A program made the translations under genes and the position numbers. From Sphingomonas koreensis (GTDB lineage Bacteria > Pseudomonadota > Alphaproteobacteria > Sphingomonadales > Sphingomonadaceae), in NCBI RefSeq assembly GCF_002797435.1, contig NZ_PGEN01000001.1, positions 1,796,501-1,860,500 of the forward strand: a stretch of DNA of 64,000 nt, read 5' to 3'. The notes below the pieces were generated by a model, which searched no databases, was not told where the DNA came from, and saw only the letters and a list, made by a program, of their open reading frames with translations. This document shows, piece after piece, positions 2,820 to 48,279 of the stretch (position 1 is the stretch's first letter; the number at the start of each line of letters is the position of its first letter).

Positions 2820-2847
2820 AGTATCTCCGGCAGTCAGTGAATCGGCT

Positions 2848-4173: not shown

Positions 4174-4190
4174 GCCACTCTCCATAATTA

Positions 4191-6327: not shown

Positions 6328-9024
6328 ATGAAAACTGTTCATCTGGGCTGGCTCGCCAGCACTGCACTTACCATCATCGCCGTTCAGAGCCCGGCCCATG
6401 CGCAGACGGCCCCGGATGCCGCCGCGGAGAACACTCCCGCGGAGGACGACGTCGTGGTGACGGGATCGCGCATTCAGCGCTCGGGCTTCGATGCGCCCAC
6501 TCCGACCACCGTGATCGGTGAAGCCGAACTGGCGCTGGGCAACCGCCCGAGCGTCGCGCAGGTCCTGAACGACGTACCACAGTTTCGCGCGACCTCGACG
6601 CCGACGACCACCGGCGGCAACACCAACAGCGGCGTCTCGACCGCGGACATGCGCGGGCTTGGCGGCGTGCGCACGCTCACCCTGCTCAACGGCCATCGAT
6701 TCTCGGGTTCTGCCGACCTCAACACCGTCCCGCAAAGCCTGGTCAAGCGCATCGACGTCGTCACCGGCGGCGCCTCCGCCGCCTGGGGTTCGGGCGCGGT
6801 CGCCGGCGTGGTCAACATCATCCTCGACGACGACTTCACCGGCTGGAAACTCGGCGCGCAGGCGGGCGTGTCGTCGCGCGGCGACGGTGGGCGCTACGGC
6901 GCCGACATTGCCTGGGGCACCGACTTCGCGGGCGGACGCGGCCACTTCATGGTCGCGGGCGACTATATGAAGGAAGACGGCATCCTCACCCGCAAGGGGC
7001 GGCCCAACCTCGAGGCCGGCCTGTTCGTGCATCCGACCGAAGGCCTCAAGTTCGTCCGGGACCCCAATTCGACGCAAGTTTACAATGGCGGCTCGATCCT
7101 CAGCACCAGTGCCGCTCCCTATGGCCTGGTCTTCGGCCCGGACGGCAACATCAATCCCTTCCCGTTCGGCAGCGTCACCAGCGGCGCGACGACAGTCGGC
7201 GGCGGCGGTCAGAACACCTATGACTATGTTCCGATCAGCGCGCCCTATCAGCGCATCAACGCCTTTGCGCGCGCCAGCTACGACGTGACCGATTCGCTGA
7301 AGGTCTGGGCGCAGTTCAGCTTCCACCGGATGACCGGCAATTACGGCCTATTCCCCGAGACCGCGGCGGACGCGAGCACGCTGATCCGGCCCGACAACGC
7401 CTTCCTGACTGCTGCGAACCGCACCCGTCTGGCCGCGGCGGGCGTCACCGGGCCGTTCCTCCTCGGCCGCTTCCTCGACGATATCGGCTCGAAGCGGGAA
7501 ATGCTGACGCTCCGCTACAGCCGCCGCAACCTCGAGGGCGCGATCGGCCTTGAAGGCAGCTTCGGCAATGGCTGGAAGTACAACGCCTATTACGACCACG
7601 GCGAAGTCCGGCTGGATCAGGGGATCAACAACCAGCGGATCAAGGCCCGCTTCGCCAACGGCGTCGATTCGGTACTTGTTGGCAACACGCCGACCTGCCG
7701 GATCAACGCTGACGCCTCGACCACCAATGACGATCCCAATTGCGTGCCGATCAATATCCTCGGCAATGGCAACATCTCCGACGCGGCGGCGAAATGGGCC
7801 TTTGCCGGCTCGCACCTCATCGCCACGATCAAGCTTGACGCGGCGGGCGCCAGCCTGTCCGGCCAGCCCTTCTCGACCTGGGCCGGGCCGGTCGACATCG
7901 CGCTCGGCACCGACGTCCGCTGGGAAAAGCAGGTCACCAACTATGTCGACCCACTGTCGCTGGCCAACGCGCTCAGCGTGCTCAACTCGTCGGCCACAAA
8001 CGGCGGCTTCAACGTCAAGGAAGCCTTTGTCGAAGCGAATCTTCCCCTGCTCGATGCCGAAGGCGTGGCCAAGCTCGAGATCAACGGCGCTGCCCGCTAC
8101 TCGGACTACAGCACCAGCGGCGGCATCTGGTCGTGGAAGACCGGGGGCACGCTGCGCCTGGTCAACGATCTGCTGCTGCGCGCTGTCTATTCGCGCGACA
8201 TCCGCTCGCCCAGCATCACCGAATATTATCTGAGCCGCTCGGTGAATATCGGCGTTGTCCAGGACCCCTATCGGGGTGGCGCGGTGCAGAGCAACGTCAC
8301 CGTCTATGGTGGCGGCAACAAGAATCTGACGCCGGAGATCTCGCACACGCTGACGCTCGGCGGGTCGTATTCGCCGAGTTTCATCCCGGGCTTCCGCCTG
8401 TCGGTCGACTATTACGACATCAACATCGACAACGTCATCACTGTGATCCCGACGCAGACACTGCTCACCCAGTGTTTTGCCAAGGCGCCGTCCGACCCGA
8501 CCTGCGGCGGAGTCATCGTTCGCAAGGCGAACGGTGAAATCGACACGCTGACGAACCCCTATCTCAACCTCGCCAACTACAACACGCAGGGCCTCGATAT
8601 CGAGGCGTCGTACCGCACGGCGCTAGGCAACGGGCAGTTGACCGTCCGCGCGCTGGCCAACCACGTCTTCCACCTGAAGGTCGATGGCGTCGAGGTATCG
8701 GGCATCGTCGGCGGCGAGACCGCCTTCTCGACGCCGAAATGGCGCGGGAGCACGACGGTGGCGTTCGACAATGCGAATTTCGGCGCCAACCTGCGCGTCC
8801 GCTATGTCGGCGGCGGCACGTACAACGCGCAGAAGATCGTCGATGGTCGCTTCGGCAGCCGCACCTATGTCGATATCGGGCTGCAGGCAAAGGTCGGTTC
8901 GTTCACGCTGTTCGGCAACGTCAACAACCTCTTCGACCGCGATCCGCCGCTCACCCAGTACATCACGCCCAATTACGACGTGATCGGCCGTTACGTATCG
9001 GGCGGAGTGAAGCTCAACTTCTGA
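6328..9024 (+). CDS. TonB-dependent receptor
   Basis: 898-residue outer-membrane receptor, complete. It has a signal peptide ending near AHAQT, a TonB-box-like segment DDVVVTGSRIQ, and a plug (LVKRIDVVTGGASAAWGSGA). The long beta-barrel closes with LFGNVNNLFDRDPP and a terminal aromatic residue (GGVKLNF). Start supported by GGAGAAGGGG upstream. It is the first gene of a locus dominated by secreted D-peptide-type hydrolases, so import of a peptide or amino-acid ligand is a reasonable inference. A strong terminator follows. Confidence 0.95.
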   Translation: MKTVHLGWLASTALTIIAVQSPAHAQTAPDAAAENTPAEDDVVVTGSRIQRSGFDAPTPTTVIGEAELALGNRPSVAQVLNDVPQFRATSTPTTTGGNTNSGVSTADMRGLGGVRTLTLLNGHRFSGSADLNTVPQSLVKRIDVVTGGASAAWGSGAVAGVVNIILDDDFTGWKLGAQAGVSSRGDGGRYGADIAWGTDFAGGRGHFMVAGDYMKEDGILTRKGRPNLEAGLFVHPTEGLKFVRDPNSTQVYNGGSILSTSAAPYGLVFGPDGNINPFPFGSVTSGATTVGGGGQNTYDYVPISAPYQRINAFARASYDVTDSLKVWAQFSFHRMTGNYGLFPETAADASTLIRPDNAFLTAANRTRLAAAGVTGPFLLGRFLDDIGSKREMLTLRYSRRNLEGAIGLEGSFGNGWKYNAYYDHGEVRLDQGINNQRIKARFANGVDSVLVGNTPTCRINADASTTNDDPNCVPINILGNGNISDAAAKWAFAGSHLIATIKLDAAGASLSGQPFSTWAGPVDIALGTDVRWEKQVTNYVDPLSLANALSVLNSSATNGGFNVKEAFVEANLPLLDAEGVAKLEINGAARYSDYSTSGGIWSWKTGGTLRLVNDLLLRAVYSRDIRSPSITEYYLSRSVNIGVVQDPYRGGAVQSNVTVYGGGNKNLTPEISHTLTLGGSYSPSFIPGFRLSVDYYDINIDNVITVIPTQTLLTQCFAKAPSDPTCGGVIVRKANGEIDTLTNPYLNLANYNTQGLDIEASYRTALGNGQLTVRALANHVFHLKVDGVEVSGIVGGETAFSTPKWRGSTTVAFDNANFGANLRVRYVGGGTYNAQKIVDGRFGSRTYVDIGLQAKVGSFTLFGNVNNLFDRDPPLTQYITPNYDVIGRYVSGGVKLNF

Positions 9025-9051
9025 CCCTCGAGCTTCACCTGCACGCCACTG

Positions 9052-9082
9052 GAGGCGGCCGGGCAACCGGCCGCCTCTTTTT
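9052..9082 (+). terminator. Rho-independent terminator after the TonB receptor
   Basis: Perfect 11-bp stem GAGGCGGCCGG (9052-9062) and CCGGCCGCCTC (9067-9077) with loop GCAA, followed by five T residues. It sits 28 bases after the receptor stop codon. Confidence 0.92.
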
Positions 9083-9480: not shown

Positions 9481-11460
9481 TCAGTAGTTCACCGTCATCG
9501 CGATCAGGCCAAAGGTCCAGGCGATGTGAAGCGCCAGCATCATCGCCAGCAGCACCAGCACGGCCCAGATCGTGCGGAACCAACCGCGCTTTTCCTGACG
9601 GACGATGCGCAGGTTCCACAGTGCGATCAGCACGCCGCCGACGAAGATGATCAGTCCGGCTATCTGGAGGAACCACAGCCACGGATCGAAGGAGGGGATT
9701 GCCTTGAGCGTCGTCAGGCTGACCAGCCAGGCGGTGGTGAGCGCGATGACCAGCCCCGAAGCGACGCGGACGCCACGATAGGCCAGCAGCGAGCGGCGCG
9801 AGAGCGTCAGCGGCGCCTTGTAGCTGCGACGGATCAGCGCCGAGACCGGCCATTGCAGGAAGGTCAGCAGCAATACCGCGAAACCGGCATAGAAAGCCGG
9901 CTTGATCCACGCCGCCGACTTGGACACGGGGGCGCGGTCGAACACCATGAAGGGCGAAAGGCCGTCCATGCTCCAGCGCACGACCTTGCCGTCGACCACC
10001 TGCGCAGCGAGCCGCCCATGGCCGTTGGCATTGTGCCAGACGAAGGGCGCGGTCTCGACCCATTTGGTGGGCGCATTGTTGATGTCACGCAGAGCCGGAA
10101 CCGCCAGTTCGCCGTTCGGGCCGACGCTGACCGTGAACTGACCGACAAGCGAGGCCAGCGCGTAGAAGTTCGACTCCGCACGGCGGCTGTTGAGCCAGTT
10201 CCCCGCCATCATCCGCGCATGTTCGGCCGACGTCTTCGCATCGACGCGCGTCGCTGGCATCTCGTTGCCAGGCAGATAGCGGTCGGCGAACTTTTCGAAC
10301 AATGCCTTGCGGACGGGACCGGCTGCCCCTTCCGCCCCGGTCGCGTTGAGCGACAGGTAGAGACCGATCTTCTCGTTCATGAACAGATGGAGCGCTGTGT
10401 GGAACAGCTGGGTATCGCCCAGATGCGCGATCACCTGGCGGCCGTTGATGTTGGTTTCGAAGAAGCCGAGCTCCATCCGATTGAGCGGAGGTAACATCGT
10501 CAGCGGCGTGTCGTGCATCGTCTTCGCGGTTTCGGGCTTCATCAGCCCCGCCCCCTGATTGAGATGCGCGATCATGAACTTGGCCATGTCCGCACCGGTC
10601 GAGGACAGCGATCCGGCGGGTGCCGGGCCGACGATCTCGAACTTCGACGCCGCGTCCGACCCCTTGCGGTATCCCGCAGCCATGTGGGCCTCGAAGCCCT
10701 TGGGCAGCGGCTGGCGGAAGGTCGACTGCGCCATGCCGAGCGGGCGGAAGATGCGCTGCTCGACATAGTCGTCGAACGACATCTTCGATGTGCGCTCGAC
10801 GATATAGCCCGCCAGCGCGGTGCCGTAGTTGGAATAGGCGGGCGTCGTCCCCGCGGCATAGATGCGCTTGGGCTGCACCTTCACATAGTCGCCGAGCGAG
10901 ATGTTGAACTTAATGTCCTCGAAGATGGTGCGCTTGCCATGCTCCTCGAACCCGGCGGTGTGCGTCATCAGCTGGCGCATCGTCACCGGCTTGCCCAGAT
11001 AAGCCGGAATCTTGAAATCGAGATAGGCGTTGACGTCCTTGTCGAGGTCGATCCGGCCCGCCTCGACCTCCTGCATCACCGCGGTCCAGGTGAACAGCTT
11101 CGACACCGATCCGGGGCGGAACAGCGTCCTGTCCGGATCGACCGGGCTACGCTTCGCGACATCGGCATAGCCGAAGCCGCGCTGGGTCAGCACCTGGCCG
11201 TCCTTGACCACGACGATGACGGCGCCCGCCAGATCGCCGCGGGCAAGGGCGTAGGGCATCAGGCCGTCGAGCCAGCCGTCGACATCTTCCTTGGTCAGCG
11301 GCCTGGCGCCCGGCGCCAGGGGGGCCGCTGCCGGGGCAGCGGCCGGAGCCAGCTGCGCCGGCTTCGGGGCGGCGGGGGCGGGCGTTTGCGCCTGCCCCGA
11401 TGCGCCGACGCCCAGAAGCAGGGCGAACGGCAGCAAGGCCTTTTGCACGATCGATCGCAT
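9481..11460 (-). CDS. Serine hydrolase (class C beta-lactamase/PBP4-like) with C-terminal membrane domain
   Basis: 659 residues: signal peptide (LLPFALLLGVGASGQAQ), an Ala/Pro-rich linker, a beta-lactamase-like catalytic domain, a middle domain, and about four C-terminal hydrophobic helices (about residues 515-655). Catalytic motifs are S118-V-S-K121 and Y209-S-N211. The fold is shared by D-aminopeptidases, DD-peptidases and esterases, so the exact reaction is uncertain. It is paralogous in domain order to the gene at 19275-21239. Membrane-anchored periplasmic action is inferred. Confidence 0.88.
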   Translation of the reverse strand: MRSIVQKALLPFALLLGVGASGQAQTPAPAAPKPAQLAPAAAPAAAPLAPGARPLTKEDVDGWLDGLMPYALARGDLAGAVIVVVKDGQVLTQRGFGYADVAKRSPVDPDRTLFRPGSVSKLFTWTAVMQEVEAGRIDLDKDVNAYLDFKIPAYLGKPVTMRQLMTHTAGFEEHGKRTIFEDIKFNISLGDYVKVQPKRIYAAGTTPAYSNYGTALAGYIVERTSKMSFDDYVEQRIFRPLGMAQSTFRQPLPKGFEAHMAAGYRKGSDAASKFEIVGPAPAGSLSSTGADMAKFMIAHLNQGAGLMKPETAKTMHDTPLTMLPPLNRMELGFFETNINGRQVIAHLGDTQLFHTALHLFMNEKIGLYLSLNATGAEGAAGPVRKALFEKFADRYLPGNEMPATRVDAKTSAEHARMMAGNWLNSRRAESNFYALASLVGQFTVSVGPNGELAVPALRDINNAPTKWVETAPFVWHNANGHGRLAAQVVDGKVVRWSMDGLSPFMVFDRAPVSKSAAWIKPAFYAGFAVLLLTFLQWPVSALIRRSYKAPLTLSRRSLLAYRGVRVASGLVIALTTAWLVSLTTLKAIPSFDPWLWFLQIAGLIIFVGGVLIALWNLRIVRQEKRGWFRTIWAVLVLLAMMLALHIAWTFGLIAMTVNY

Positions 11461-11525
11461 CTCTCACTCTCCCGGCGTGCCTCGGTGCGAGGCCGCTCAT
11501 TCTTGTGTGGAACGACGAGGCCGGA

Positions 11526-12815
11526 TCACTCCCCGGCCGGGCGGACGACGGCGCCGCCCTTCATCACGAAGTGCATCGTCTCGAGTTGCCGGACGTCCTT
11601 GAGCGGATCGCCGCGCACCGCGACGATGTCCGCCGCCTTGCCTGCCGCGATCGAGCCGATCTCGTTCTCCAGCCCGATATGCGTCGCACCCCAGACCGTC
11701 GCGGCGCGGATCGTGTCGAGCGGCGTCATCCCCGCCTTCACCATCAATGCGAACTCGCGGGCATTGTCGCCGTGCTTCGACACCGCGGAGTCGGTGCCGA
11801 AGGCGATCTTGACGCCGCCCTGATGCGCGCGCCGCAACGCATCGACCATCAGCGGGCCTACCGTGCGCGCCTTGACGCGCACCGGCTCGGGCATCCAGTC
11901 GGCGGTCGCGGCCTGCTGGGTCACCGTGTCCCCGGCAAGCAGGGTCGGGACGAGATAGCTTCCCTTCGCCTTGAACAGCCGGATCGATTCCGGATCCATG
12001 AACGTGCCGTGCTCGACCGAGTCCACGCCTGCACGCAATGCGGCGTTGACGCCATCAGTGCCATGGGCGTGCGCGGCGACCTTGCGGCCGAGCCGGTGCG
12101 CGGTCTCGACGATCGAGACCAGCTCGGCATCGCTCATCTGCTGGCCAAGGCCTGCCGCGGTGTTCGACATCACCCCGCCGGTCGAGGCGGTCTTGATGAT
12201 GTCGGCGCCCCCCTGGATCGCCTGCCGAACCGCACGCGCGCAATCGTCGGCGCCCGAGCAGAGCGTAGGCGAGCGGAACAGGTCGATGATCTCCTGCCGA
12301 TATCCGTGGACATCGCCATGCCCGCCATGCGCGGCGACCCCGCCGGCGGCGATGATGCGCGGACCGACGATCTTGCCGCTGGCGGTCGCGGCACGCAGCG
12401 CGTTGATCGCCTCTTGGGACGCGCCGAGATCAACGACGGTGGTGAAGCCCGCGCGCACCGTCCGCCCGGCATAGACGACGCCGTCGAACGCCTGGTCGGT
12501 GGTCGATTTGGTCACGGCGTCGAGCCGGCTGGTCGGGCTCGATTCGAAGGTCAAATGGACATGGCTGTCGATGAAGCCCGGCATGACGAACGCGTCGCGC
12601 AGATCGACCACCTTGCCCTCGCCGACATAGCCGTCGCGAATCTCGACGACCTTGCCACGCTCGACGACGATCGTCTTCTCAGTCTCGACCCGTCCACTCG
12701 CCGGGTCGGCAAGCAGGCGGCCGGCCTGGACATAGGTCCGGGCGGGCGCGTCCTGGGCGATGGCGGGCTGGATGAAAGCGGCGCCCGCCAGCGCCGCGAA
12801 AATGACCTTCTTCAT
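11526..12815 (-). CDS. Secreted amidohydrolase (Xaa-Pro dipeptidase/imidazolonepropionase-like)
   Basis: 429-residue metal-dependent amidohydrolase with a signal peptide (MKKVIFAALAGAAFIQPAIAQ), so probably periplasmic. Metal-binding motifs are FIDSHVHL (HxH), a histidine in VAAHAHGTDG, SVEHGTFMD and IAFGTDSAVSKHG. The start at 12815 is preceded by AGGAGAAGG; the longer frame to 12929 lacks family similarity. Relatives cleave dipeptides or N-acyl amino acids. It lies in a leftward run with the other locus hydrolases, 34 bases after dgcA. Confidence 0.9.
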   Translation of the reverse strand: MKKVIFAALAGAAFIQPAIAQDAPARTYVQAGRLLADPASGRVETEKTIVVERGKVVEIRDGYVGEGKVVDLRDAFVMPGFIDSHVHLTFESSPTSRLDAVTKSTTDQAFDGVVYAGRTVRAGFTTVVDLGASQEAINALRAATASGKIVGPRIIAAGGVAAHGGHGDVHGYRQEIIDLFRSPTLCSGADDCARAVRQAIQGGADIIKTASTGGVMSNTAAGLGQQMSDAELVSIVETAHRLGRKVAAHAHGTDGVNAALRAGVDSVEHGTFMDPESIRLFKAKGSYLVPTLLAGDTVTQQAATADWMPEPVRVKARTVGPLMVDALRRAHQGGVKIAFGTDSAVSKHGDNAREFALMVKAGMTPLDTIRAATVWGATHIGLENEIGSIAAGKAADIVAVRGDPLKDVRQLETMHFVMKGGAVVRPAGE

Positions 12816-12849
12816 GCCCCTGTTCCTTCTCCTGTTCGTTGCGGCGCGG

Positions 12850-13854
12850 TCATCCGCGTCCCCAGATGGCTTCGCTGCACCAGGCATCGCCATCGCGATA
12901 CTCGATCGAAGGCGTGCGGTCGGCGGCAAGGAAGATCGGACCGTCGAGGTCGACGATGTCGCAGAGCTGGCCGACGATGAAGGCGGGCGCCATCGCCAGG
13001 CTCGAACTGACCATGTTGCCGACCATCACGCCCAGCCCCAGCTCGCGCGCACGGCGCGCCATGGCGAGGCCCTCGGTCAGCCCGCCGCACTTGTCGAGCT
13101 TGATGTTGACGACGTCGAACCGCCCGACGACCCCGTCGATATCGGCGAGCGTCAGCACGCTCTCGTCCGCCGCAAGCGGGATCGGGCTACTGTAGCCGTC
13201 GAGATCGGCCTCGCGCCCCCGCGCGAGTGGCTGTTCGAGCAGCTTGACGTCCGCCGCGACCAATGCCGCGATCAGCCGATCAAGCTCGCCGATCGCGAAC
13301 CCCTGATTGGCATCGACCCCGATCCAGCATTCGGGCCGCGCCGCGCGCACTGCATCGACCCGTGCGATGTCGAGATCCAGGTCGCCAGTCAGCTTGAGCT
13401 TGAGCGCGCGCGCCTGCGCGAAATCGCGCGCGCCCGCCGCCATCACCTCGGGATCGTCGGCGCCAAGCGTGAAGGTGGTGCGCAGCGGGCGCGGCGCGGG
13501 CAGGTCCGCCAGCTCATGCACCGGCGTATCGCTACGCCGCGCACCCAGCTCCCACAGCGCGCAGTCGATCGCGTTGCGCGCACCGCCGGCGGGCAGCAGG
13601 TTCTGCAACCCGTCGCGGGTGATCCCCGCCTCGACCGCCGCTCGCGCATCCTCGATCGCGGCGGTCATCGCCGGCACGTCGTCACCCAGATAATAGACGC
13701 CCGCTGCCTCGCCGCGTCCGATATGGATGCCGTCCGAAACCGTGACGATCACCACCGGTGCCTCGGTGAAGACATGGCCGGAGATGCGGAACGGCTTGGC
13801 GAGCGGCAGCGATTCGATCGCCACGTCGAGCGTAAGACCGGTGGTGCTGGTCAT
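12850..13854 (-). CDS. dgcA: Enolase-superfamily epimerase, N-acetyl-D-Glu racemase type
   Basis: 334-residue member of the L-Ala-D/L-Glu epimerase branch of the enolase superfamily. The catalytic KxK is visible (LKLKLTGD, K152 and K154), with metal ligands in GVDANQGF (D181), LLEQPL (E207) and LAADES (D230), and the second base in NIKLDKCGG. Two substrates are known in this branch: Ala-Glu dipeptides and N-acetyl-D-glutamate (DgcA). A DgcN-like gene in the same run favours DgcA, racemising N-acetyl-D-Glu to the L form. The symbol rests on that context. Confidence 0.8.
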   Translation of the reverse strand: MTSTTGLTLDVAIESLPLAKPFRISGHVFTEAPVVIVTVSDGIHIGRGEAAGVYYLGDDVPAMTAAIEDARAAVEAGITRDGLQNLLPAGGARNAIDCALWELGARRSDTPVHELADLPAPRPLRTTFTLGADDPEVMAAGARDFAQARALKLKLTGDLDLDIARVDAVRAARPECWIGVDANQGFAIGELDRLIAALVAADVKLLEQPLARGREADLDGYSSPIPLAADESVLTLADIDGVVGRFDVVNIKLDKCGGLTEGLAMARRARELGLGVMVGNMVSSSLAMAPAFIVGQLCDIVDLDGPIFLAADRTPSIEYRDGDAWCSEAIWGRG

Positions 13855-13876
13855 CGAAATTTGTCCTTCATTCGGT

Positions 13877-15316: not shown

Positions 15317-15320
15317 GGCC

Positions 15321-16940
15321 TTAGACCCCACAGCCATGGCGAAGCACCTTGCCGGCCTTGGCGCCGCTATGCTTGCCGTCGGCGAAGGTGACGACGCCGT
15401 TGACGATCACCGTCTCGATTCCTGTCGGCGAGGCGGTCGGCTTGTCCCAGTTCGCCACGTCGTCGAGCGTATCGAGATCGAACACGACGATATCGGCGCG
15501 CATCCCGTCGCGGATCAGCCCGCGATCGGTCAGCCCCATGCGCTGCGCCGGCCAGCCGGTCATCTTGCGCACCGCATCCTCCAGCGTCAGGACCGGACGA
15601 CGCTTCACATATTCGGCTATGATACGAGGGAAGGTGCCATAGGCGCGCGGATGCGGCAGGCCGAGGTCATCCATCTCGCCGAACTTCTCCGACGCCGCCG
15701 CATCGCTGCCGATGCTGACCCAGGGCTGTTTGAGTGCGGCCTCGATATCCTGCTCGTTCATCATGAAATAGAGCGCGACCGAACGGTTGGGCAGGCCCTC
15801 AAGCAGGATGTCCCATGCGACGTCGGCAGGATCGCGTTTCAGCGTGGCGCCGATCTCGGCCAGGCTCTTGCCGTGGTACGGTCGGTATTTGTCGCTGAAA
15901 CTGTTGGCGAGACGGACATTCTGGAACCCGCCCGACGCATGGACGAGGTTCGACCAGCCGGGCATCGATCCTGCGGCGACCTCCTTCTTCATCCGCTCGC
16001 GCAATTTTGGGTCGCGCAGCCGTTCGATCCCCTTCTGCACACCGTCGGCCCAAACCCAGCTCGGCGCGATGATCTCAAGGCCAGTCCCGCCGGCGGTGTA
16101 GGGATAGAGGTCCGCCGCGACATCCACCCCGCGCGCCCGTGCCGCGTTGATCGCGGCCAGCGCCTGCGGCATCAGCTTGCCCCAGCCCGGCGCATAGGCG
16201 CCTTTAAGGTGGAAGATTTCGACCTTCACCCCGCCCTTCTCGCCGATCTCGATCGCTTCCTCGACCGCCTTGACCAGCCCTTCGCTCTCGTCGCGCATGT
16301 GGGTGGCGTAGAAGCCGTCGCATTGCGCCGCGACCTTCGCCAGCGTGACGAGGTCCGATGTCGTCTGGAAGCTGCTCGGCGGGTAGATCAGCGCGCTGGT
16401 GATGCCGAACGCGCCATTCTGCATCGCGAGTTTCACCTCGCGCCCCATCTCCTCGAGCTGCGCGGCGGTCGGCGATCCGGCGCCGTCGCCCATCACCTTT
16501 ATCCGCGCCTGCGTCGCCGAATAGTAAGTGCCGAAGTTGATCGAGATGCCCTGCTGCTCGAGCTTGCCGAAGTAGGCCGGAATCTCGGCGGCCGGCACCG
16601 GGGTGCCACCCTCGCCCGCAATCACCGTGGTCACGCCCATGCGCAGCTTGTTCTCGGCCGCGCCGTTCTTGAGCAGGACACTGCCCGACTGGTCCATCAT
16701 GTCGATGAAGCCGGGCGAGACATAGCGGTCGCGCGCGTTGATCTCCTTCGCGCCTCGGCCCGAAACCTGACCGATGCGGACCACGCGACCGTCCTTCACC
16801 GCGACATCGGCGCGGACCCAGGGGCTGCCCGCGCCGTCGAGCACGCGGCCGCCCCGAATCACGATGTCATATTCGGGCGCGGGCGCGTTCGCGACCAGCA
16901 GCAACGACAGGGCGCCGAACAGGATCTTACGCTTCATCAT
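15321..16940 (-). CDS. D-aminoacylase-like amidohydrolase (N-acyl-D-amino-acid deacylase family)
   Basis: 539 residues with a short signal peptide (ILFGALSLLLVANAPAP). The amidohydrolase composite domain starts with YDIVIRGGRVLDGAGSPWVRADVAVKDGRVVRIG, and conserved stretches include FYATHMRDES, KVEIFHLKG and DAVRKMTGWPAQRMGL. In the usual metal-binding position PGFIDxHxH it reads PGFIDMMDQSGS, so the canonical HxH is absent, as in a divergent subfamily. Expected chemistry is removal of acyl groups from D-amino acids, but activity is uncertain. Start at 16938-16940 follows GGGAG. Confidence 0.82.
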   Translation of the reverse strand: MMKRKILFGALSLLLVANAPAPEYDIVIRGGRVLDGAGSPWVRADVAVKDGRVVRIGQVSGRGAKEINARDRYVSPGFIDMMDQSGSVLLKNGAAENKLRMGVTTVIAGEGGTPVPAAEIPAYFGKLEQQGISINFGTYYSATQARIKVMGDGAGSPTAAQLEEMGREVKLAMQNGAFGITSALIYPPSSFQTTSDLVTLAKVAAQCDGFYATHMRDESEGLVKAVEEAIEIGEKGGVKVEIFHLKGAYAPGWGKLMPQALAAINAARARGVDVAADLYPYTAGGTGLEIIAPSWVWADGVQKGIERLRDPKLRERMKKEVAAGSMPGWSNLVHASGGFQNVRLANSFSDKYRPYHGKSLAEIGATLKRDPADVAWDILLEGLPNRSVALYFMMNEQDIEAALKQPWVSIGSDAAASEKFGEMDDLGLPHPRAYGTFPRIIAEYVKRRPVLTLEDAVRKMTGWPAQRMGLTDRGLIRDGMRADIVVFDLDTLDDVANWDKPTASPTGIETVIVNGVVTFADGKHSGAKAGKVLRHGCGV

Positions 16941-16983
16941 TCCATCTCCCTGCCGCCGGCCGATAATCCGACGACTCCTGTTG

Positions 16984-18078
16984 TCATTTCCTGGCGGCGA
17001 GCTGCGCATCGGCGCGCACCGTATCGACGACTTCGCGCACGGCAGCGATCACGACTTCGGGGCGATCGACCTGGATATAGTGTGTCGCGTCGGGCACGAT
17101 CTGCTGGCGTCCGCGGGTCGAGAAGGCCGCCTGTTCGGTATGGAGATTCTTCCACTCCTGCTTGAAGCGTTCGCCTTGCTCCGCCTTCAACCCCAGCCCT
17201 TCCAGCTGTTCGGGCTTCATCGGCGCCATCGCTGTCAGCACGATCAGCGGCCGGTTCCCGAAACTATGGACAGCGCGCGCATCGGCCATGGTCTGGTCGA
17301 ACCCGTCGAGTTCGGACGCCGACCCCCGGATCGAGGTGCTGCCATAGGCGGCGGCCTTCGCGAGCCCGTCGCCAAGCTTCTTGGTTTCCGCTGCGGTCCG
17401 AAGCTTCGGGCCTTCGCTTCGGGTAATGAGAAAACGCACGAGTCCGGTCCAGGCGAGGGCCTTTGCGCCGTGCATGATCGTCGATGCGCGATTGGGGTGA
17501 GCGTTGATGCCCGACACCTTTCCGAGCCGCGCGACCTGGTCGGGGTGCGACGGATCGACCATCACCAACCCCGCGACTTGATCGCCATATTTGCCGACAT
17601 AGGTCCGCGTGTAGGGGCCACCGATCGAGTGGCCGACGAGCATCAGCGGGTCATCGACCCCCGCCCGCTTCAGCAGCGTGTGGAGATCGTCGGCGACGGC
17701 GGAGGCGCGCTGAGGGGCATCCTTGGGGGCGCTCCACATGATGCCCGCTCGATCATAGGCGCAGGTGCGCGTGAAGCGCGCGATCTGGTCATGCACCAGC
17801 GTCCAGTCGGTCGTCCCGCCCGTTCCCAGCCCGGACTCGAGGATGACCGTCGGCGAGCCCGTGCCACGGCAATCGATATGCATTTTCCGCCCGCCGACAT
17901 CGACCAGCTTGCCGGGCGGCGGATAGTTCGCCTGCGCATTGCGGCGGCCCAGCGCCTCATAGATCGTCCCGATGATCACGATGATCATGAGGAGGGCCAG
18001 CAGGCCGAGCAGGATGCGCTTCAGCCATCGCAGGGCCCGCCTCCATCCGCCCGGCTTCTTGATCGCAGCGTCGGACAT
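16984..18078 (-). CDS. Alpha/beta hydrolase, membrane-anchored
   Basis: 364 residues with one N-terminal transmembrane helix (about residues 18-42, LLGLLALLMIIVIIGTIY) and an alpha/beta-hydrolase domain. The nucleophile elbow is GHSIGG (serine about residue 159); other landmarks are YDRAGIMWS and a late histidine in PDATHYIQVDRPEVV. The substrate is unknown. It lies between the deacylase and dgcN genes in the leftward run with short gaps, so co-expression with them is likely. Confidence 0.87.
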   Translation of the reverse strand: MSDAAIKKPGGWRRALRWLKRILLGLLALLMIIVIIGTIYEALGRRNAQANYPPPGKLVDVGGRKMHIDCRGTGSPTVILESGLGTGGTTDWTLVHDQIARFTRTCAYDRAGIMWSAPKDAPQRASAVADDLHTLLKRAGVDDPLMLVGHSIGGPYTRTYVGKYGDQVAGLVMVDPSHPDQVARLGKVSGINAHPNRASTIMHGAKALAWTGLVRFLITRSEGPKLRTAAETKKLGDGLAKAAAYGSTSIRGSASELDGFDQTMADARAVHSFGNRPLIVLTAMAPMKPEQLEGLGLKAEQGERFKQEWKNLHTEQAAFSTRGRQQIVPDATHYIQVDRPEVVIAAVREVVDTVRADAQLAARK

Positions 18079-18109
18079 CAGACGTTCCTTTCGATGGCTG
18101 AGCCGGCGC

Positions 18110-19156
18110 TCATGCTAGGCAGGCGTTCACGAGACGGTCGAACATTTCGCCCCCGCGAATGGGATCGGCGACCGGCATGCCCAGCCGCGCGCTTTCCATT
18201 CTCATGAGATCGGTCGCAGCCTGCGCATCCATATGTGCGGTGTTGAACGACACGCCCGCGCAGCGGATCGCGGGATTGGTGCGCGCGCCCAGACGCAGGT
18301 TGAGGTCGATGGTCTCCTCGATGCTCGGCAATGCGTAGCCGGGCAGCCCCATCACCTCGGTGCGACCGGGCTCATGGCAGACCACGATCGTGTCGGGCTG
18401 GCTGCCATGGAGCAGACCCAGCGACACCGCCGCATAGGCGGGGTGGAACAGCGAGCCCTGCCCTTCGATCACGTCCCAGTGATCCGCGGCGGCATCGGGG
18501 CTCACCGCCTCGGCAGCGCCCGCCTCGAAATCGGAGACCACGGCGTCCATCGGTATGCCGCCGCCGGCGATCATGATGCCGGTCTGTCCGGTCGCGCGGA
18601 AATCGGCATCCACCCCGCGGGCGGCAAAGGCCCGCGCGATCGCCAGCGCGGTATATTTCTTTCCCAGCGCGCAGTCGGTTCCGACGGTGAGCAGGCGCTT
18701 GCCCGTCCGCTTGCGGCCGGACCCGACCGGCAGACCGGCGGGCGGGTGGCGCACGTCGATCAGCTGCCGGCCAAGACGCTGTGCCCGTTCGGCTAGTCCA
18801 GGGATATCGGCGAGCCGCATATGCATACCGCTGACGATATCGAGCCCGGCGTCGAGTGCCTCGACCAGCGCCGGGATCCAGCTCGCGGCGATGACGCCGC
18901 CGCTGTTGGCGACCCCGATCAGCAGCGATTGCGCGCCCCGCGCATGGGCCTGTGCCGGGGTCAACTGCTCCAGGCCCGCGCTGACCGTCGCCCCGGGCAA
19001 CGCATATTCGCCGACGCACTTCTCGGGCGCCCAGTCGCGCAGCCCGAACGCGGTCTTGGCATAGCCGCGCTCGGTCGTATCGCCGAGGAACAGCAGATAG
19101 GGCTGCGGCAGGATCAATGACCCGGTACTCGCATCGAGAGAGGTTTGGATGTTCAC
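18110..19156 (-). CDS. dgcN: DUF1611-family protein, D-glutamate N-acetyltransferase type
   Basis: 348-residue DUF1611 protein. It has an N-terminal Rossmann-like domain and a C-terminal P-loop domain with the nucleotide-binding stretch GTDCALGKKYTALAIA, followed by ATGQTGIMIAGGGIP and IEGQGSLFHPAYA. Members named DgcN acetylate D-glutamate in a pathway with the racemase DgcA, which is present in the same run. First gene of the leftward operon that continues into the alpha/beta hydrolase, deacylase, hydrolase and dgcA genes. The functional name follows family knowledge plus context. Confidence 0.82.
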   Translation of the reverse strand: MNIQTSLDASTGSLILPQPYLLFLGDTTERGYAKTAFGLRDWAPEKCVGEYALPGATVSAGLEQLTPAQAHARGAQSLLIGVANSGGVIAASWIPALVEALDAGLDIVSGMHMRLADIPGLAERAQRLGRQLIDVRHPPAGLPVGSGRKRTGKRLLTVGTDCALGKKYTALAIARAFAARGVDADFRATGQTGIMIAGGGIPMDAVVSDFEAGAAEAVSPDAAADHWDVIEGQGSLFHPAYAAVSLGLLHGSQPDTIVVCHEPGRTEVMGLPGYALPSIEETIDLNLRLGARTNPAIRCAGVSFNTAHMDAQAATDLMRMESARLGMPVADPIRGGEMFDRLVNACLA

Positions 19157-19232
19157 GTACTCACCCTGCTAAGTCAGAAGCCGGACATTCGAGGCGATTG
19201 AACTCCGCACGCCTGCGACATCCTGATTGGAC

Positions 19233-19250
19233 AATAATTCTCCATTTAGA
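19233..19250. promoter_or_regulatory. Candidate shared operator, copy 2
   Basis: AATAATTCTCCATTTAGA about 77 bases upstream of dgcN shares the core ATTCTCCATTT with 6217-6232. It lies in an AT-rich interval between dgcN and the end of the next upstream gene and is a plausible promoter/operator for the dgcN operon. Confidence 0.3.
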
Positions 19251-19274
19251 AAACACAACATAATTCGTCGTGCT

Positions 19275-21239
19275 TCAGAATGCGGTGCCCCAGCCGATAA
19301 GATGGAAGACGGTGGCGAACCACAGCAGCACGACCGAGCCAATCACCAGCACCACGCTCCAGATGCGGCGGAACTTGCCCGGCACACCTTTCCAGACTAG
19401 CCACAGGTTCCAGACCGCAACGCTAAGCAGCGCAATCAGGACGAGCGGCGTCGCGATCCGCAACGCGATCAATATCCCGTCGAGTTCACCATTCATCGAA
19501 GAGAAGTCAGACAACAGTGCCGAGGCGAACACCGGCCAGGCGACCATCACTGCCACCGCAAGTCCGGCAAGCGCGCAGGTCAGGCGATAGGCCCGCCATT
19601 CCGCGACGCTGCGCGCCGGACGGGCACCATAATATCGCCGGACGAGCGCGGTGATCGGCCAGAACAGCGCGGTCAGCGCGAGCGCGGCAAGGCTCGCCAA
19701 CAGCGCCGGAGCCAGCCAGGCGCTGGAGCTGTACCACGGAACGGGTTCGAACAGCATGAAGGGCGACGACGAATCGATCCCGAAGCGAACGACACGGCCA
19801 TTTTCCACTTTCGCCGCCAGGCGCATCCTGCCACCCACCTCACGCCAGACGAAGGGAGCGATCTCGACCCATTTTCGGGGCGCTCCCCCGACAGTCTGCG
19901 CCGCATCGAAGACCAGGCCGCCGTTGGCATCGAGCGTCACCTTGAACTGCCCGGCAATTTCGGCCGCCTTCAGAAAGCTCGTCTCCAGCCTGCGGGTCTT
20001 GTTGTAGGTTCCGACCATCATCCGCGCATGCTCGCGTGCCGTCGCGGCATCGACGCGGCCGTCACGCTGGGCAGCGGGGAAGTAACGATCGGCGAAGCCC
20101 TCGAACAACTGGCTGCGAATCGCGCCCGACACCTTGTTCGAGCCCGCAGCGTTCATCGACATATAGAGGCCGACCTTCTCGGCCGGGAACAGCCATAGCT
20201 GACTGTGGAACTCGATCGAATCGCCGCCGTGCGAGATCACCTTCCGGCCGTTGATATTCTGCTCGTAGAAGCCCAGCGCCATGCCGTTGAGAGGCGGAAT
20301 CGCCCGGGTGATGCTGTCGTGCATGAGGCGCGCGGTCTCGGGCTTGAGCAACGGCCCGCCATTGTCGAGATGCGCGATCATGAAGCGCCCGAGATCGGCG
20401 CCCGACGCGGCCATGCCGCCGGCCGGGGCGAAGCTGTTGAGTTCCGGCCGCCCCGGCTTGCCCGAGCCAAGCGCATAGCCCTTTGCGAGCAGTGGTTCGA
20501 GCCGGGCAGGCAGCTTCGCGCGCAGGGTCGAGTGCGTCATGCCGGCCGGTGCGAAAATCCGCTGCTCGACGTAGTTGTCGAAAGGCATGCCCGAAACCCG
20601 CTCGACAATGTAACCGGCGAGCGCGGTGCCATAGTTCGAATAGGCGGGCGTACTGCCAGGCGCGTAGATCCGCGCCGGAACCTGGCGCTTCATCGCCACG
20701 GCAAGGGTCGGAATATCCTTGATGTCGTAGCTGTTGAGGCCGCGTTGCACCTCATCGAAACCCGCAGTGTGGGTCATCAGATTGCGCATCGTGACGGGCT
20801 TGCCGGCATAGGGCGGAATCTTGAAATCGAGATAGGCGTTGATGTCCGTGTCGAGGTCGATCTTACCCGCCTCGACCATCTGCATCACGGCAGTCCAGGT
20901 GATCGTCTTCGACACCGACGCCTGCTTGAACAGCGTGGTTTCGGGATCGACCGACCGCCGGTTCGCGACATCAGCAAAGCCGAAGCCTCTCTGGGTGAGA
21001 ACCGCCCCGTCCTTGACCACGACGACAACCGCTCCCGCGGCATTTCCGCGTTCGAGCGCATAGGGCATGTAGCCGTCCAGCCAGATATCGACGTCGGCCT
21101 TGGTGATCTCCCGGGCCGGGACGCTCGCAGCCACAGCTTCAGCGGTTGCAGTGGTGGGAGCCGGGTTCGACGCCGCAGCGCCTGCCAGCATCGCCAAGGC
21201 GAATGCGCCCGCCATCTTGATCGATCTGCCAAACCGCAT
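19275..21239 (-). CDS. Serine hydrolase (class C beta-lactamase/PBP4-like) with C-terminal membrane domain, paralogue 2
   Basis: 654 residues with the same layout as the hydrolase at 9481-11460: signal peptide (AGAFALAMLAGAAAS), catalytic domain with S108-V-S-K111 and an AYSNYGTA motif, middle domain, and four C-terminal transmembrane helices (about residues 505-650). Start at 21239 has GGAG upstream; the frame extends further to 21494, but that part is arginine-rich and lacks similarity. The two genes flank the dgc operon, which suggests duplication within the locus and processing of related D-peptide or ester substrates. Confidence 0.87.
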   Translation of the reverse strand: MRFGRSIKMAGAFALAMLAGAAASNPAPTTATAEAVAASVPAREITKADVDIWLDGYMPYALERGNAAGAVVVVVKDGAVLTQRGFGFADVANRRSVDPETTLFKQASVSKTITWTAVMQMVEAGKIDLDTDINAYLDFKIPPYAGKPVTMRNLMTHTAGFDEVQRGLNSYDIKDIPTLAVAMKRQVPARIYAPGSTPAYSNYGTALAGYIVERVSGMPFDNYVEQRIFAPAGMTHSTLRAKLPARLEPLLAKGYALGSGKPGRPELNSFAPAGGMAASGADLGRFMIAHLDNGGPLLKPETARLMHDSITRAIPPLNGMALGFYEQNINGRKVISHGGDSIEFHSQLWLFPAEKVGLYMSMNAAGSNKVSGAIRSQLFEGFADRYFPAAQRDGRVDAATAREHARMMVGTYNKTRRLETSFLKAAEIAGQFKVTLDANGGLVFDAAQTVGGAPRKWVEIAPFVWREVGGRMRLAAKVENGRVVRFGIDSSSPFMLFEPVPWYSSSAWLAPALLASLAALALTALFWPITALVRRYYGARPARSVAEWRAYRLTCALAGLAVAVMVAWPVFASALLSDFSSMNGELDGILIALRIATPLVLIALLSVAVWNLWLVWKGVPGKFRRIWSVVLVIGSVVLLWFATVFHLIGWGTAF

Positions 21240-21548
21240 CTTGCTCTCCGATGCCGCCTCTCCCAACGCAGAGAGCACGACGATTTCCCAAATGAAATTT
21301 TTTTCATTTTGAGACACTCCATCTAGCACCGCTTTGTCAATGGCCGATTTAGGCGCTTGCGATCTGCGCCGGAGGAGGGCCGGCCGGCCGCCGCCTCTCG
21401 TGCCCCGCTCAGCCGGAACCGAAGGGGCGCTTGCATTGCGCTCATCGTTTGGACCGTTATAGTTGCAGGCGAGTTCTATTCTTGATTGCGACAAGATGAT
21501 CCTGCACCGAAACGAGCTTGACCAACATTCACCAGAACGCGGCGTCGC
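21240..21548. other. Divergent regulatory region (serine hydrolase / XRE-cupin regulator)
   Basis: 309 bases between divergent genes. It contains an AT-rich palindrome AAATGAAA-TTTT-TTTCATTT (21290-21309) near the hydrolase gene. I see no additional credible gene here. Confidence 0.55.
21290..21311. promoter_or_regulatory. Candidate shared operator, copy 3
   Basis: An 8-bp inverted repeat with a T4 spacer (21290-21309) lies about 50 bases upstream of the hydrolase start. Its GAAATTTTTTTCATTTTG portion (21294-21311) resembles the motif at 6217-6232. It sits next to the XRE-cupin regulator gene, so autoregulation plus control of the hydrolase is a fair guess. Confidence 0.35.
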
Positions 21549-22193
21549 ATGAAGGACGGCCAGCCTACCCTCGGAAAGTTGCTGCGTGGCCTGCGCGATC
21601 GTAATCGCTGGACTCTAAAGGAAATGAGCGAGCAAACGGGAATTCCCGTCTCGACGCTTTCCAAGATCGAGCACGACCGCCTCACGCTCTCTTACGACAA
21701 GCTCCTGCAGCTCAGCCGGCGGCTGAATATTCGCATGTCGGAACTGTTCGCCGAGAATGACGGCAGCGAAACGCAGGTTACCGCACGGCGCAGCGTCGGC
21801 GATCTCAGCCGTGCCGTTCGGGTCAAGACGCCCAACTACGACTATTTCTATCTGTGCACGGAGTTGCGGCGGAAGCGGATGCTTCCGATCATGACGCGCA
21901 TTCGTGCCAAGACCCCCGAGGAATTCGGCGAGCTCGTTCGGCATCCCGGCGAGGAATTCGTCTTCGTCGTGTCAGGCCGGATCGTTGTGCATACCGAATT
22001 CTACGACCCCGTCGCTCTCGAAGAGGGGCAATCGATCTACATCGATTCGAATATGGGCCACGCCTACATCACGGGCGAAGGGTGCGACGAGGCGGTCGTG
22101 CTCGGCGTATGTTCCAGCGCGGAAAGTGATCTCATGGGCTCGCTCATGAACCTCCATGGCGAGGACGCTGAAAGAGCGCCCGCCGGCGAGTGA
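21549..22193 (+). CDS. XRE-family regulator with C-terminal cupin domain
   Basis: 214 residues: an N-terminal helix-turn-helix (LGKLLRGLRDRNRWTLKEMSEQTGIPVSTLSKIE, about residues 8-41) and a C-terminal cupin sensor (HPGEEFVFVVSGRIVVHTEFYDPVALEEG). This architecture is common for regulators of amino-acid and polyamine catabolism that sense a small ligand in the cupin. Divergent from the third serine hydrolase and adjacent to the dgc locus, it is the best candidate for the locus regulator. Confidence 0.9.
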   Translation: MKDGQPTLGKLLRGLRDRNRWTLKEMSEQTGIPVSTLSKIEHDRLTLSYDKLLQLSRRLNIRMSELFAENDGSETQVTARRSVGDLSRAVRVKTPNYDYFYLCTELRRKRMLPIMTRIRAKTPEEFGELVRHPGEEFVFVVSGRIVVHTEFYDPVALEEGQSIYIDSNMGHAYITGEGCDEAVVLGVCSSAESDLMGSLMNLHGEDAERAPAGE

Positions 22194-44854: not shown

Positions 44855-44874
44855 CCTTATCCAATGGCCGGCTT

Positions 44875-45282: not shown

Positions 45283-45291
45283 GGGGTGACC

Positions 45292-48108: not shown

Positions 48109-48138
48109 CGCGATCACACCATCTACACTTCAAGCAGC

Positions 48139-48166: not shown

Positions 48167-48279
48167 CGAAAGAATTCATCTTTCTCTGGACTGACGAATC
48201 CCACTGCGTTTCAAGGGATTTACGCTGATCGATCGTGCCGATAACTGGTCCGTCCCATCACGCAACGGAGGACAAGTTC

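What the first reader, a model, noticed from the sequence alone, without database searches (positions are those of the whole stretch)
6328..22193. A D-glutamate / D-peptide scavenging locus built around dgcN-dgcA
DgcN-like and DgcA-like genes sit in one leftward run with a D-aminoacylase-like protein, two secreted serine hydrolases of the D-aminopeptidase/PBP fold (a third at 9481), a secreted amidohydrolase and an alpha/beta hydrolase. The run is flanked by a TonB receptor and an XRE-cupin regulator. Seen: the families and order. Known: DgcN/DgcA convert D-Glu to N-acetyl-L-Glu. Inferred: the locus imports and degrades D-Glu-containing peptides, such as peptidoglycan stem peptides or poly-gamma-glutamate.
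Basis: partly seen in the sequence, partly recalled or inferred. Interest (0 to 1): 0.72.

Follow-up and report, generated by a model that had tools for sequence, protein, structure and literature searches.

The report
D-amino-acid peptide degradation gene cluster
A sphingomonad-type bacterium carries an operon that appears to break down peptides holding mirror-image (D-) amino acids and flip the freed D-amino acid to the usable form; it was read as a D-glutamate pathway, but its two key enzymes lack the charged residues that go with glutamate, so it probably handles other D-amino acids.

Summary
The genes are real and in the order stated: eight tightly packed leftward genes (9481-21494) between a convergent TonB receptor and a divergent XRE-cupin regulator. 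Thirteen of the 14 closest named relatives keep dgcN and dgcA in essentially the same operon, so the hydrolase-dgc linkage is conserved. The D-glutamate label is not supported. The genome holds three dgcN-dgcA modules within about 70 kb; only one of them, not the window's, passes NCBI's DgcN cut-off. The window's pair belongs to a separate clade (133 DgcN, 110 DgcA). There the canonical DgcA residues R24, K/R27 and R53 are G, F and Y, and DgcN R29 and R255 are A and L/M/I. Catalytic residues are intact. The switches are coupled in 37 of 37 canonical and 85 of 85 window-clade loci that could be scored. Neighbour genes differ too. Best reading: extracytoplasmic hydrolysis of D-residue-containing peptides or N-acyl-D-amino acids, then acylation and racemisation of a non-acidic, probably hydrophobic, D-amino acid. 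Substrate, acyl donor and final deacylase are inferred; nothing was assayed. Poly-gamma-glutamate has no support.

The parts
6328..9024 (+). TonB-dependent outer-membrane receptor (898 aa), convergent with the operon; presumed importer of the peptide or N-acyl substrate
   Evidence: PF00593 + PF07715; ligand not predictable, NCBIfam matches far below their cut-offs
9481..11460 (-). Serine hydrolase, class C beta-lactamase/D-peptidase fold, signal peptide plus four C-terminal TM helices (SerTM_9481)
   Evidence: PF00144 192 bits; TM scan; SxxK, YxN, HxG motifs invariant in alignment A2 (motif names recalled)
11526..12815 (-). Secreted amidohydrolase of the Cc2672 carboxypeptidase / ochratoxin-amidohydrolase / Xaa-Pro dipeptidase group
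   Evidence: PF01979; NF051886 362 bits, below cut-off 500; nearest solved include 9kov, 8ihq, 2qs8, 3mtw (that 8ihq is an ochratoxin hydrolase is recalled); signal-like N-terminus in relatives, by eye
12850..13854 (-). DgcA-like enolase-superfamily racemase with G26/F29/Y55 at the positions of R24/K-R27/R53 (E. coli numbering)
   Evidence: NF042940 370.2 bits; clade and residue tables
13877..15337 (-). Secreted PF00144 serine hydrolase without TM anchor
   Evidence: signal-like N-terminus in most relatives, by eye
15321..16940 (-). Secreted N-acyl-D-amino-acid deacylase-like amidohydrolase (DAA_C)
   Evidence: PF07969; nearest solved 3gip N-acyl-D-Glu deacylase 236 bits, D-aminoacylase 1rjp 218.5 bits; signal-like N-terminus in most relatives, by eye
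16984..18078 (-). Membrane-anchored alpha/beta hydrolase (N-terminal TM 22-40)
   Evidence: PF00561; TM scan
18110..19156 (-). DgcN-like (DUF1611) presumed D-amino-acid N-acyltransferase with A43/M269 at the positions of R29/R255 (7xrj numbering)
   Evidence: NF041892 458.6 bits, cut-off 480; 352 bits to 7xrj; residue tables
19275..21239 (-).
   Evidence: PF00144 201 bits; AlphaFold model pLDDT 86.9; Foldseek matches include Pab87, SurE with D-Leu, Lip3 DL-peptidase, the ClbP domain and a D-aminopeptidase, among many beta-lactamases
21496..21504 (-). CAGGATCAT, core of a promoter/operator-like box conserved in front of related XRE-cupin genes; tentative
   Evidence: 9-mer in 33 of 123 related XRE upstream regions against 14 of 1110 random stretches; it is the only exact copy in the window, where 0.54 copies are expected by chance
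21549..22193 (+). Divergent XRE-cupin regulator
   Evidence: PF12844/PF01381 + PF07883

Best explanation
The run is an operon for taking up and degrading peptides or N-acyl conjugates that contain a D-amino acid, ending in inversion of the freed D-amino acid. A TonB receptor brings the substrate into the periplasm. Secreted or membrane-anchored hydrolases (three D-peptidase-fold serine hydrolases, an N-acyl-D-amino-acid deacylase, a carboxypeptidase-type amidohydrolase, an alpha/beta hydrolase) cut it up there. The D-amino acid crosses the inner membrane, in relatives probably through an APC-fold transporter encoded next to dgcN; the window run lacks that gene and the genome has one copy, near module B. 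[quoted passage not shown] Keeping the D-deacylase outside the membrane would avoid a futile cycle with DgcN. The D-amino acid is most likely not D-Glu but a non-acidic, probably hydrophobic one. Shown: families, order, conservation, clade, residue switches. Inferred: every reaction, transport step and substrate.
For: (1) Three dgcN-dgcA modules in one genome; only the 1.745-Mb dgcN passes the DgcN cut-off, and it sits beside a PF00375 symporter. (2) Separate clades: DgcA 110 sequences (support 0.999) against 37 canonical (0.965); DgcN 133 (0.989) against 40 (0.972). (3) Of the family-search sequences, 40 of 40 canonical-clade and 0 of 64 window-clade DgcN reach the cut-off. (4) DgcA, canonical to window clade, gaps left out: R24 31/31 to G 103/106; K/R27 34/35 to F 103/108; R53 37/37 to Y 107/110; H232 37/37 to L 82/110. 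DgcN: R29 38/39 to A 127/133; R255 39/40 to L/M/I 127/133. (5) Catalytic K152, K154, D179, E205, D228, K250 in 147 of 147. (6) Coupling of the switches: 37 of 37 and 85 of 85 loci with exactly one DgcA within four genes, none mixed; 48 of 133 and 3 of 40 loci had no such partner and were not scored. (7) Context within eight genes, window clade (n=133) against canonical (n=40), BLAST labels: SerTM-type hydrolase 112 v 2 (at 45% identity or more 98 v 0), XRE-cupin 103 v 1, transporter 96 v 1, M19 76 v 1; LysR 1 v 36, PF00375-type symporter 3 v 28. (8) Transporter model has an APC/LeuT-type fold. (9) Signal-like N-termini of the hydrolases, and none on DgcA/DgcN, in relatives.
Against: No enzyme was assayed. 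That R24 contacts the Glu carboxylate is recalled; the two papers that might show it are not held, and I had no coordinates to place R29/R255 of DgcN. The window clade also gains conserved basic residues (DgcA R163 110/110, R171 108/110, R210 101/110, the last five residues after metal ligand E205; DgcN K153 132/133, R278 110/133), which could bind an acidic group by another route. The deacylase's nearest solved relative is an N-acyl-D-Glu deacylase (236 bits), though D-aminoacylase is nearly as close (218.5). No L-aminoacylase is linked. M19, POT and the transporter are frequent in relatives but absent from the window run; the genome has four M19, one POT and one transporter elsewhere. The canonical DgcA of this genome is itself 3.6 bits below its cut-off. 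69 of the 133 clade DgcN come from a scan keyed on the window's own protein.
Confidence: 0.6

Rival explanations
1. One reading: a second D-Glu pathway in which the window-clade enzymes bind D-Glu through different residues (for example DgcA R210), feeding on muropeptides or N-acyl-D-Glu.
For: Same enzyme families; D-Glu is abundant in peptidoglycan (recalled); deacylase nearest to 3gip; newly conserved R210 near metal ligand E205.
Against: Coupled replacement of conserved basic residues in both enzymes; LysR in 1 and PF00375-type symporter in 3 of 133 window-clade loci, against 36 and 28 of 40 canonical loci; a canonical module already present in the same genome; 0 of 64 window-clade DgcN of the family search reach the equivalog cut-off.
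Confidence: 0.15
2. DgcA of this clade is a dipeptide epimerase (L-Xaa-D-Xaa to L-Xaa-L-Xaa), not an N-acyl-amino-acid racemase; linked POT permease and M19 dipeptidase in relatives feed it.
For: Both Asp of the DLDGP motif, which binds the dipeptide ammonium (recalled), are in 147 of 147; 4gfi and E. coli YcjG are the closest solved relatives; POT within 8 genes in 34 of 133 loci and M19 in 76 of 133.
Against: The same motif is present in the canonical DgcA clade; 105 of 133 window-clade DgcN have a DgcA of this type within 8 genes, and DgcN would have no role in such a scheme; M19 already cleaves L-D dipeptides (recalled specificity).
Confidence: 0.12
3. The acyl donor is succinyl-CoA rather than acetyl-CoA, making this a counterpart of the N-succinylamino-acid racemase pathway that inverts hydrophobic D-amino acids in Geobacillus (recalled).
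For: Newly conserved basic residues DgcN K153 and DgcA R210 could hold a succinyl carboxylate; the known pathway has the same logic.
Against: K153 also occurs in 27 of the 29 other DgcN loci, so it does not track this clade; there is no donor evidence at all.
Confidence: 0.08
4. Genes of the run are mostly unrelated detoxification or esterase functions brought together by chance.
For: PF00144 and amidohydrolase families are promiscuous (recalled); the adjacent HmgA/FAH genes show no conserved link with the module.
Against: Nearly the same operon in the 14 closest named relatives; SerTM-type hydrolase near 112 of 133 window-clade loci against 2 of 40 canonical loci.
Confidence: 0.03

Closest known systems
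DgcN-DgcA D-glutamate pathway (EC 2.3.1.312 / 5.1.1.25; named in passages of PMC10845958 and PMC11747546; original reports recalled, not seen)
   Same: Same two enzyme families (NF041892 and NF042940 are the best NCBIfam models), in one run, catalytic residues of the racemase intact
   Different: Below both equivalog cut-offs; basic residues of the canonical clades replaced in both enzymes; different regulator, transporter and hydrolases; the genome has a separate canonical copy
L-Ala-D/L-Glu epimerase YcjG (PDB 1jpd; gene name recalled)
   Same: Enolase-superfamily protein with KxK, metal ligands and DLDGP motif
   Different: R24, R27, R53 and H232 of 1jpd are G, F, Y and L in the window protein; linked to a DUF1611 partner
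N-succinylamino acid racemase pathway of Geobacillus (recalled)
   Same: Logic: acylate a D-amino acid, racemise the N-acyl form, deacylate
   Different: There a GNAT acyltransferase and an OSBS-type racemase (recalled); here DUF1611 and a DgcA-type racemase, with a secreted hydrolase set
N-acyl-D-glutamate deacylase / D-aminoacylase (3gip, 1rjp)
   Same: Closest solved relatives of 15321-16940 by sequence
   Different: Here with a signal-like N-terminus; specificity cannot be told from scores
S12 D-peptidases (Pab87 2qmi, SurE 6ksv, Lip3 DL-peptidase 9sn1, D-aminopeptidase 1ei5)
   Same: Among the fold matches of the 19275 hydrolase
   Different: Four C-terminal TM helices; about 20% identity, and esterases and beta-lactamases match comparably, so substrate is not transferable
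TonB receptor beside D-aminoacylase in a marine gammaproteobacterium (PMC3400609, passages read)
   Same: Receptor next to a D-aminoacylase gene; N-acyl-D-amino acids proposed there as substrates from context
   Different: No DgcN/DgcA pair is mentioned in the passages read, and DUF1611 has no occurrence in that paper

Membership tests
DgcN-DgcA D-glutamate pathway | DgcN over NCBIfam NF041892 cut-off (480 bits) | tested here: not met
   458.6 bits; 0 of 64 window-clade and 40 of 40 canonical-clade DgcN of the family search reach it
DgcN-DgcA D-glutamate pathway | DgcA over NCBIfam NF042940 cut-off (400 bits) | tested here: not met
   370.2 bits; but the genome's canonical-clade copy also scores only 396.4, so this test is weak alone
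DgcN-DgcA D-glutamate pathway | Conserved basic residues of the canonical clades (DgcA R24, K/R27, R53; DgcN R29, R255) | tested here: not met
   Window has G, F, Y and A, M
DgcN-DgcA D-glutamate pathway | Both genes in one run | tested here: met
   12850-13854 and 18110-19156, same strand, three genes between
DgcN-DgcA D-glutamate pathway | LysR-type regulator and PF00375-type symporter nearby, as in 36 and 28 of 40 canonical-clade loci | tested here: not met
   XRE-cupin instead; no PF00375 among the ten genes
DgcN-DgcA D-glutamate pathway | Turnover of D-Glu with acetyl-CoA and of N-acetyl-D-Glu | not testable with these tools
   needs enzyme assays
Enolase-superfamily racemase/epimerase (mechanism) | KxK, Asp/Glu/Asp metal ligands, second catalytic Lys (roles recalled) | tested here: met
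   K152, K154, D179, E205, D228, K250 present in the window protein and in 147 of 147 clade members
L-Ala-D/L-Glu epimerase | NCBIfam NF011708 cut-off 343 bits | tested here: not met
   227.2 bits
N-acyl-D-amino-acid deacylase family | PF07969 match and D-aminoacylase relatives | tested here: met
   77.2 bits against cut-off 29.7; 3gip, 1rjp
N-acyl-D-glutamate deacylase specificity | Side-chain carboxylate-binding residue of 3gip (recalled to lie near 295) | tested here: inconclusive
   Residues 290-339 of 3gip are not covered by the alignment
S12 D-stereospecific peptidases | Beta-lactamase/PBP fold with SxxK, YxN, HxG | tested here: met
   PF00144 for three proteins; for the two anchored ones, S134, K137, Y226, N228, H363, G365 invariant in 26 aligned sequences
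S12 D-stereospecific peptidases | Cleavage at a D-residue | not testable with these tools
   fold matches only

The most novel reading that the evidence does not exclude
DgcN/DgcA is not a single D-Glu pathway but a radiating family of acylate-and-racemise cassettes for many D-amino acids, with a readable specificity code (DgcN positions 29/255; DgcA positions 24/27/53): R,R + R,K/R,R for D-Glu; A,L/M/I + G,F,Y for hydrophobic D-amino acids; and further codes (position 255 = D, Q, S, N, G, H or L among 29 other loci) for yet other D-amino acids. The linked APC-fold membrane protein, which matched no Pfam or NCBIfam model at the thresholds used, would be a new D-amino-acid transporter family.
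Probability: 0.45. Interest if true: 0.78.

Novelty: new variant of a known kind. Interest (0 to 1): 0.6.

Why it matters
Genes with this resemblance may be labelled as D-glutamate catabolism. If the switch is real, a large clade (133 DgcN sequences here, from sphingomonads, Lysobacter, Steroidobacter, Rudaea and relatives) should be re-annotated as catabolism of other D-amino acids. That bears on how bacteria recycle D-peptides from cell walls and microbial peptides. The coupled residue code makes the question directly testable with two purified enzyme pairs from one genome, and it points to a candidate D-amino-acid transporter family.

Tried and rejected
Aromatic-catabolism link: homogentisate dioxygenase and fumarylacetoacetase lie at 1560-4185, which suggested D-Phe/D-Tyr. 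No gene of the other analysed loci (L020-L239 and the own-genome stretch, flanks of about 10 kb) was labelled as either, so this was dropped. A Leu/Phe/Val-dehydrogenase-type gene lies near 12 of 133 and an Lrp-type gene near 17 of 133 window-clade loci: suggestive but minor.

ClbP-like reading of the TM-anchored hydrolases: the ClbP domain is only one of many matches, so no special relation is claimed.

Final deacylase: a search with one neighbouring M20-type protein found 5 hits in the loci analysed, none within eight genes of a window-clade dgcN. One query only, so other deacylase families are not excluded.

Operator: the 17-base box CCAATCAGGATCATTAT is within 3 mismatches in 50 of 92 related XRE upstream regions against 2 of 222 control stretches, but the window has no copy within 3 mismatches, only the 9-base core, of which 0.54 copies are expected in the window by chance. 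Its regulation is not settled. No 6-base-arm inverted repeat was widely shared (best 5 of 67, shuffles up to 2).

One search was meant to be an M19 protein but the coordinates were those of a DgcN; it added nothing on M19. Paper searches (no paper) gave no direct account of such modules in what they listed: 12 of 29, 15 of 573, 6 of 14 and 15 of 619 papers. The library holds only CC-licensed papers.

Dropped rows: before the trees I removed DgcN outside 290-420 aa, DgcA outside 280-420 aa, weak matches and exact duplicates. Of the 203 DgcN rows, 29 loci outside both clades and 7xrj are in neither count. The coupling count uses only loci with exactly one DgcA within four genes: 85 of 133, 37 of 40 and 10 of 29; the other 70 loci had none. 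Gene calls were made with a home-made codon-usage caller, which missed some genes (for example the dgcN of L229, so that locus is in no count). Family labels of neighbours are best BLAST hits at E 1e-8, without an identity limit unless stated.

Full report
What is there. Leftward from 21494 to 9481 run: a membrane-anchored beta-lactamase/D-peptidase-fold serine hydrolase, a DgcN-like DUF1611 protein, an alpha/beta hydrolase with an N-terminal anchor, a D-aminoacylase-like amidohydrolase, a secreted serine hydrolase, a DgcA-like enolase-superfamily protein, a secreted amidohydrolase and a second anchored serine hydrolase. Gaps are 22-118 bp, with one 17-bp overlap. An XRE-cupin gene diverges at 21549 and a TonB receptor converges at 6328-9024. 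No Rfam match at gathering score and no tRNA lies in the window.

Conservation. A scan of species genomes with the window's DgcN kept the best 80 named loci of at least 587 relatives. In the 14 closest (Sphingopyxis strains, Sphingomonas sp. QA11 and ERG5, a Sphingomonadaceae isolate and MAGs) the order is essentially the same: 19275-type hydrolase, dgcN, a membrane protein, alpha/beta hydrolase, deacylase, 13877-type hydrolase, dgcA, amidohydrolase, 9481-type hydrolase. DgcN, alpha/beta hydrolase, deacylase and amidohydrolase are in 14 of 14; dgcA, each anchored hydrolase and the membrane protein in 13 of 14; the 13877 type in 11 of 14. So the hydrolase-dgc linkage is real. The window lacks the membrane-protein gene, which in relatives overlaps or closely follows dgcN; its genome has exactly one copy, near module B. 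In the family search three other same-genus genomes had one DgcN each and two had none, so the window's module is unusual in its genus, by gain or by loss elsewhere.

Three modules in one genome. The genome (one 4.40-Mb contig) has three dgcN genes at 1745223, 1758792 and 1814649, scoring 523.2, 453.4 and 458.4 bits against a cut-off of 480, each with its own dgcA. Only the first passes. Beside it are a PF00375 symporter, a TonB receptor, an amidohydrolase and a serine hydrolase. In 298 genomes of the family, 85 have a DgcN match and seven of them have six or seven (at most seven candidates per genome were scored). Of the 71 genomes with fetched and classified DgcN, 26 have only the window clade, 19 only the canonical clade and 18 both (7 of these with other types too); the remaining 8 hold other types alone or with one clade. 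Not every copy was fetched.

Why not D-glutamate. DgcA and DgcN trees each separate the window type from the canonical type. The window clade holds 110 DgcA and 133 DgcN, the canonical clade 37 and 40; module B of this genome falls with the window. In E. coli numbering the canonical DgcA keeps R24 (31/31 read), K/R27 (34/35), R53 (37/37) and H232 (37/37), as does E. coli L-Ala-D/L-Glu epimerase; the window clade has G (103/106), F (103/108), Y (107/110) and L (82/110). The first three lie in the 20s and 50s loops that set specificity in this superfamily (recalled). In DgcN, R29 (38/39) and R255 (39/40), also present in the solved 7xrj, become A (127/133) and L/M/I (127/133). Catalytic residues are untouched in 147 of 147 DgcA. 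The two switches are locked together: among loci with exactly one DgcA within four genes, 37 of 37 canonical loci have a basic residue at DgcN 255 and R at DgcA 53, and 85 of 85 window-clade loci have a hydrophobic residue at 255, no basic residue at 29, and none at the three DgcA positions where read; no locus was mixed. Results against: the window clade also gains basic residues, notably DgcA R163, R171 and R210 (110, 108 and 101 of 110; R210 near metal ligand E205) and DgcN K153 (132/133).

Context agrees. Within eight genes, window-clade DgcN (n=133) has a SerTM-type hydrolase in 112, XRE-cupin in 103, a DgcA of its type in 104, the membrane protein in 96, M19 dipeptidase in 76, a D-aminoacylase-type amidohydrolase in 67 and a POT peptide permease in 34; the canonical clade (n=40) has 2, 1, 0, 1, 1, 31 and 0. 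LysR is near 1 of 133 against 36 of 40, the PF00375-type symporter near 3 of 133 against 28 of 40. At 45% identity or more the SerTM, XRE and M19 counts are 98 v 0, 85 v 1 and 65 v 1. The canonical locus of this very genome lies beside module B and supplies some of the single hits. M19, POT and penicillin-amidase assignments of the reference proteins rest on Pfam. Some loci end at contig edges, so counts are lower bounds, and 69 of the 133 come from the scan keyed on the window protein.

Supporting parts. The membrane protein matched no Pfam model (E up to 0.01) or NCBIfam model (E up to 1e-8). Its AlphaFold model (pLDDT 88.2) matches APC/LeuT-fold proteins: best E-value YcsG, then bacterial Asc, AdiC and Nramp metal transporters; TM-scores of 0.72-0.74 to bacterial Asc/LAT and SLC7A10. 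An amino-acid transporter is likely but the fold also carries other solutes. The 19275 hydrolase model (pLDDT 86.9) matches Pab87, SurE bound to D-Leu, Lip3 DL-peptidase and D-aminopeptidase, but also an esterase, LACTB and many class C beta-lactamases: compatible with a D-residue peptidase, not proof. The secreted amidohydrolase groups with Cc2672 carboxypeptidase, a Xaa-Pro dipeptidase and ochratoxin amidohydrolases. Signal-like N-termini on the hydrolases and their absence on DgcN and DgcA are shared with relatives, judged by eye, which puts hydrolysis outside and inversion inside.

Beyond two types. Twenty-nine DgcN loci fall outside both clades, with D, Q, S, N, G, H or L at position 255 and other DgcA codes where a partner was found. 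This suggests several D-amino-acid specificities, but no substrate can be assigned.

What is known. Two papers seen in the library mention the DgcN-DgcA pathway or its enzymes: PMC10845958 and PMC11747546 (passages read). One search matched 573 papers on looser terms, of which 15 were listed and only PMC11747546 was relevant. Two papers hold DUF1611, seen in the listing only. PMC3400609 (passages) had proposed N-acyl-D-amino acids as TonB-receptor substrates from a D-aminoacylase neighbour. PMC13338154 (passages) notes that a Thermotoga dipeptide epimerase takes hydrophobic residues, so such specificities exist in this superfamily. PMC3605383 was searched for residue terms without a hit. I saw no account of a hydrophobic-type DgcN-DgcA clade in searches, in a library limited to CC-licensed papers.

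Verdict. Observation confirmed; D-peptide idea supported; D-glutamate assignment not supported. Confidence 0.6 in the non-acidic reading.

Noticed in passing
L046, L047, L060, L065, L072, L076, L193, L194, L201, L210, L217, L223, L226, L232, L234, L235, L238, mostly upstream of an XRE-cupin gene: A 28-base sigma70-like promoter/box TTGACAATTTTCCAATCAGGATCATTAT is conserved between the divergent XRE-cupin gene and the dgc operon from sphingomonads to Lysobacter. A degenerate form is in 17 of 245 loci (a few loci are the same place fetched twice); a stricter form is in 1 of 196 order genomes, at a single place.
   Followed up: partly
L065:10528-13824(-): M19 dipeptidase and TonB receptor read as one 1098-aa open frame in this genome, where relatives have two genes.
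   Followed up: no
window 42504-59884: Region that from its first residues looks like a mobile element: IS21-like istA/istB, MobA-like relaxase, ParB-like protein and integrases, downstream of flagellar-type genes; names from recall, not searched.
   Followed up: no
L005:5595-14959: Tryptophan-halogenase-family gene, TonB receptor, GntP permease and GH20 hexosaminidase next to module B of the same genome (the receptor by its sequence start).
   Followed up: no
window 1560-4185: Fumarylacetoacetase and homogentisate dioxygenase beside the TonB receptor; link with the dgc module not seen in the other loci analysed.
   Followed up: yes
canonical dgcN loci, for example L122:15141-17534(+): Penicillin-amidase family gene near 10 of 40 canonical dgcN loci, hinting at N-acyl substrates.
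   Followed up: no
L074 / L178 (G242): The genome that shares a 678046-base contig length with Sphingosinicella microcystinivorans DSM 19791 has seven DgcN matches; a link with the D-residues of microcystin is only a thought.
   Followed up: no
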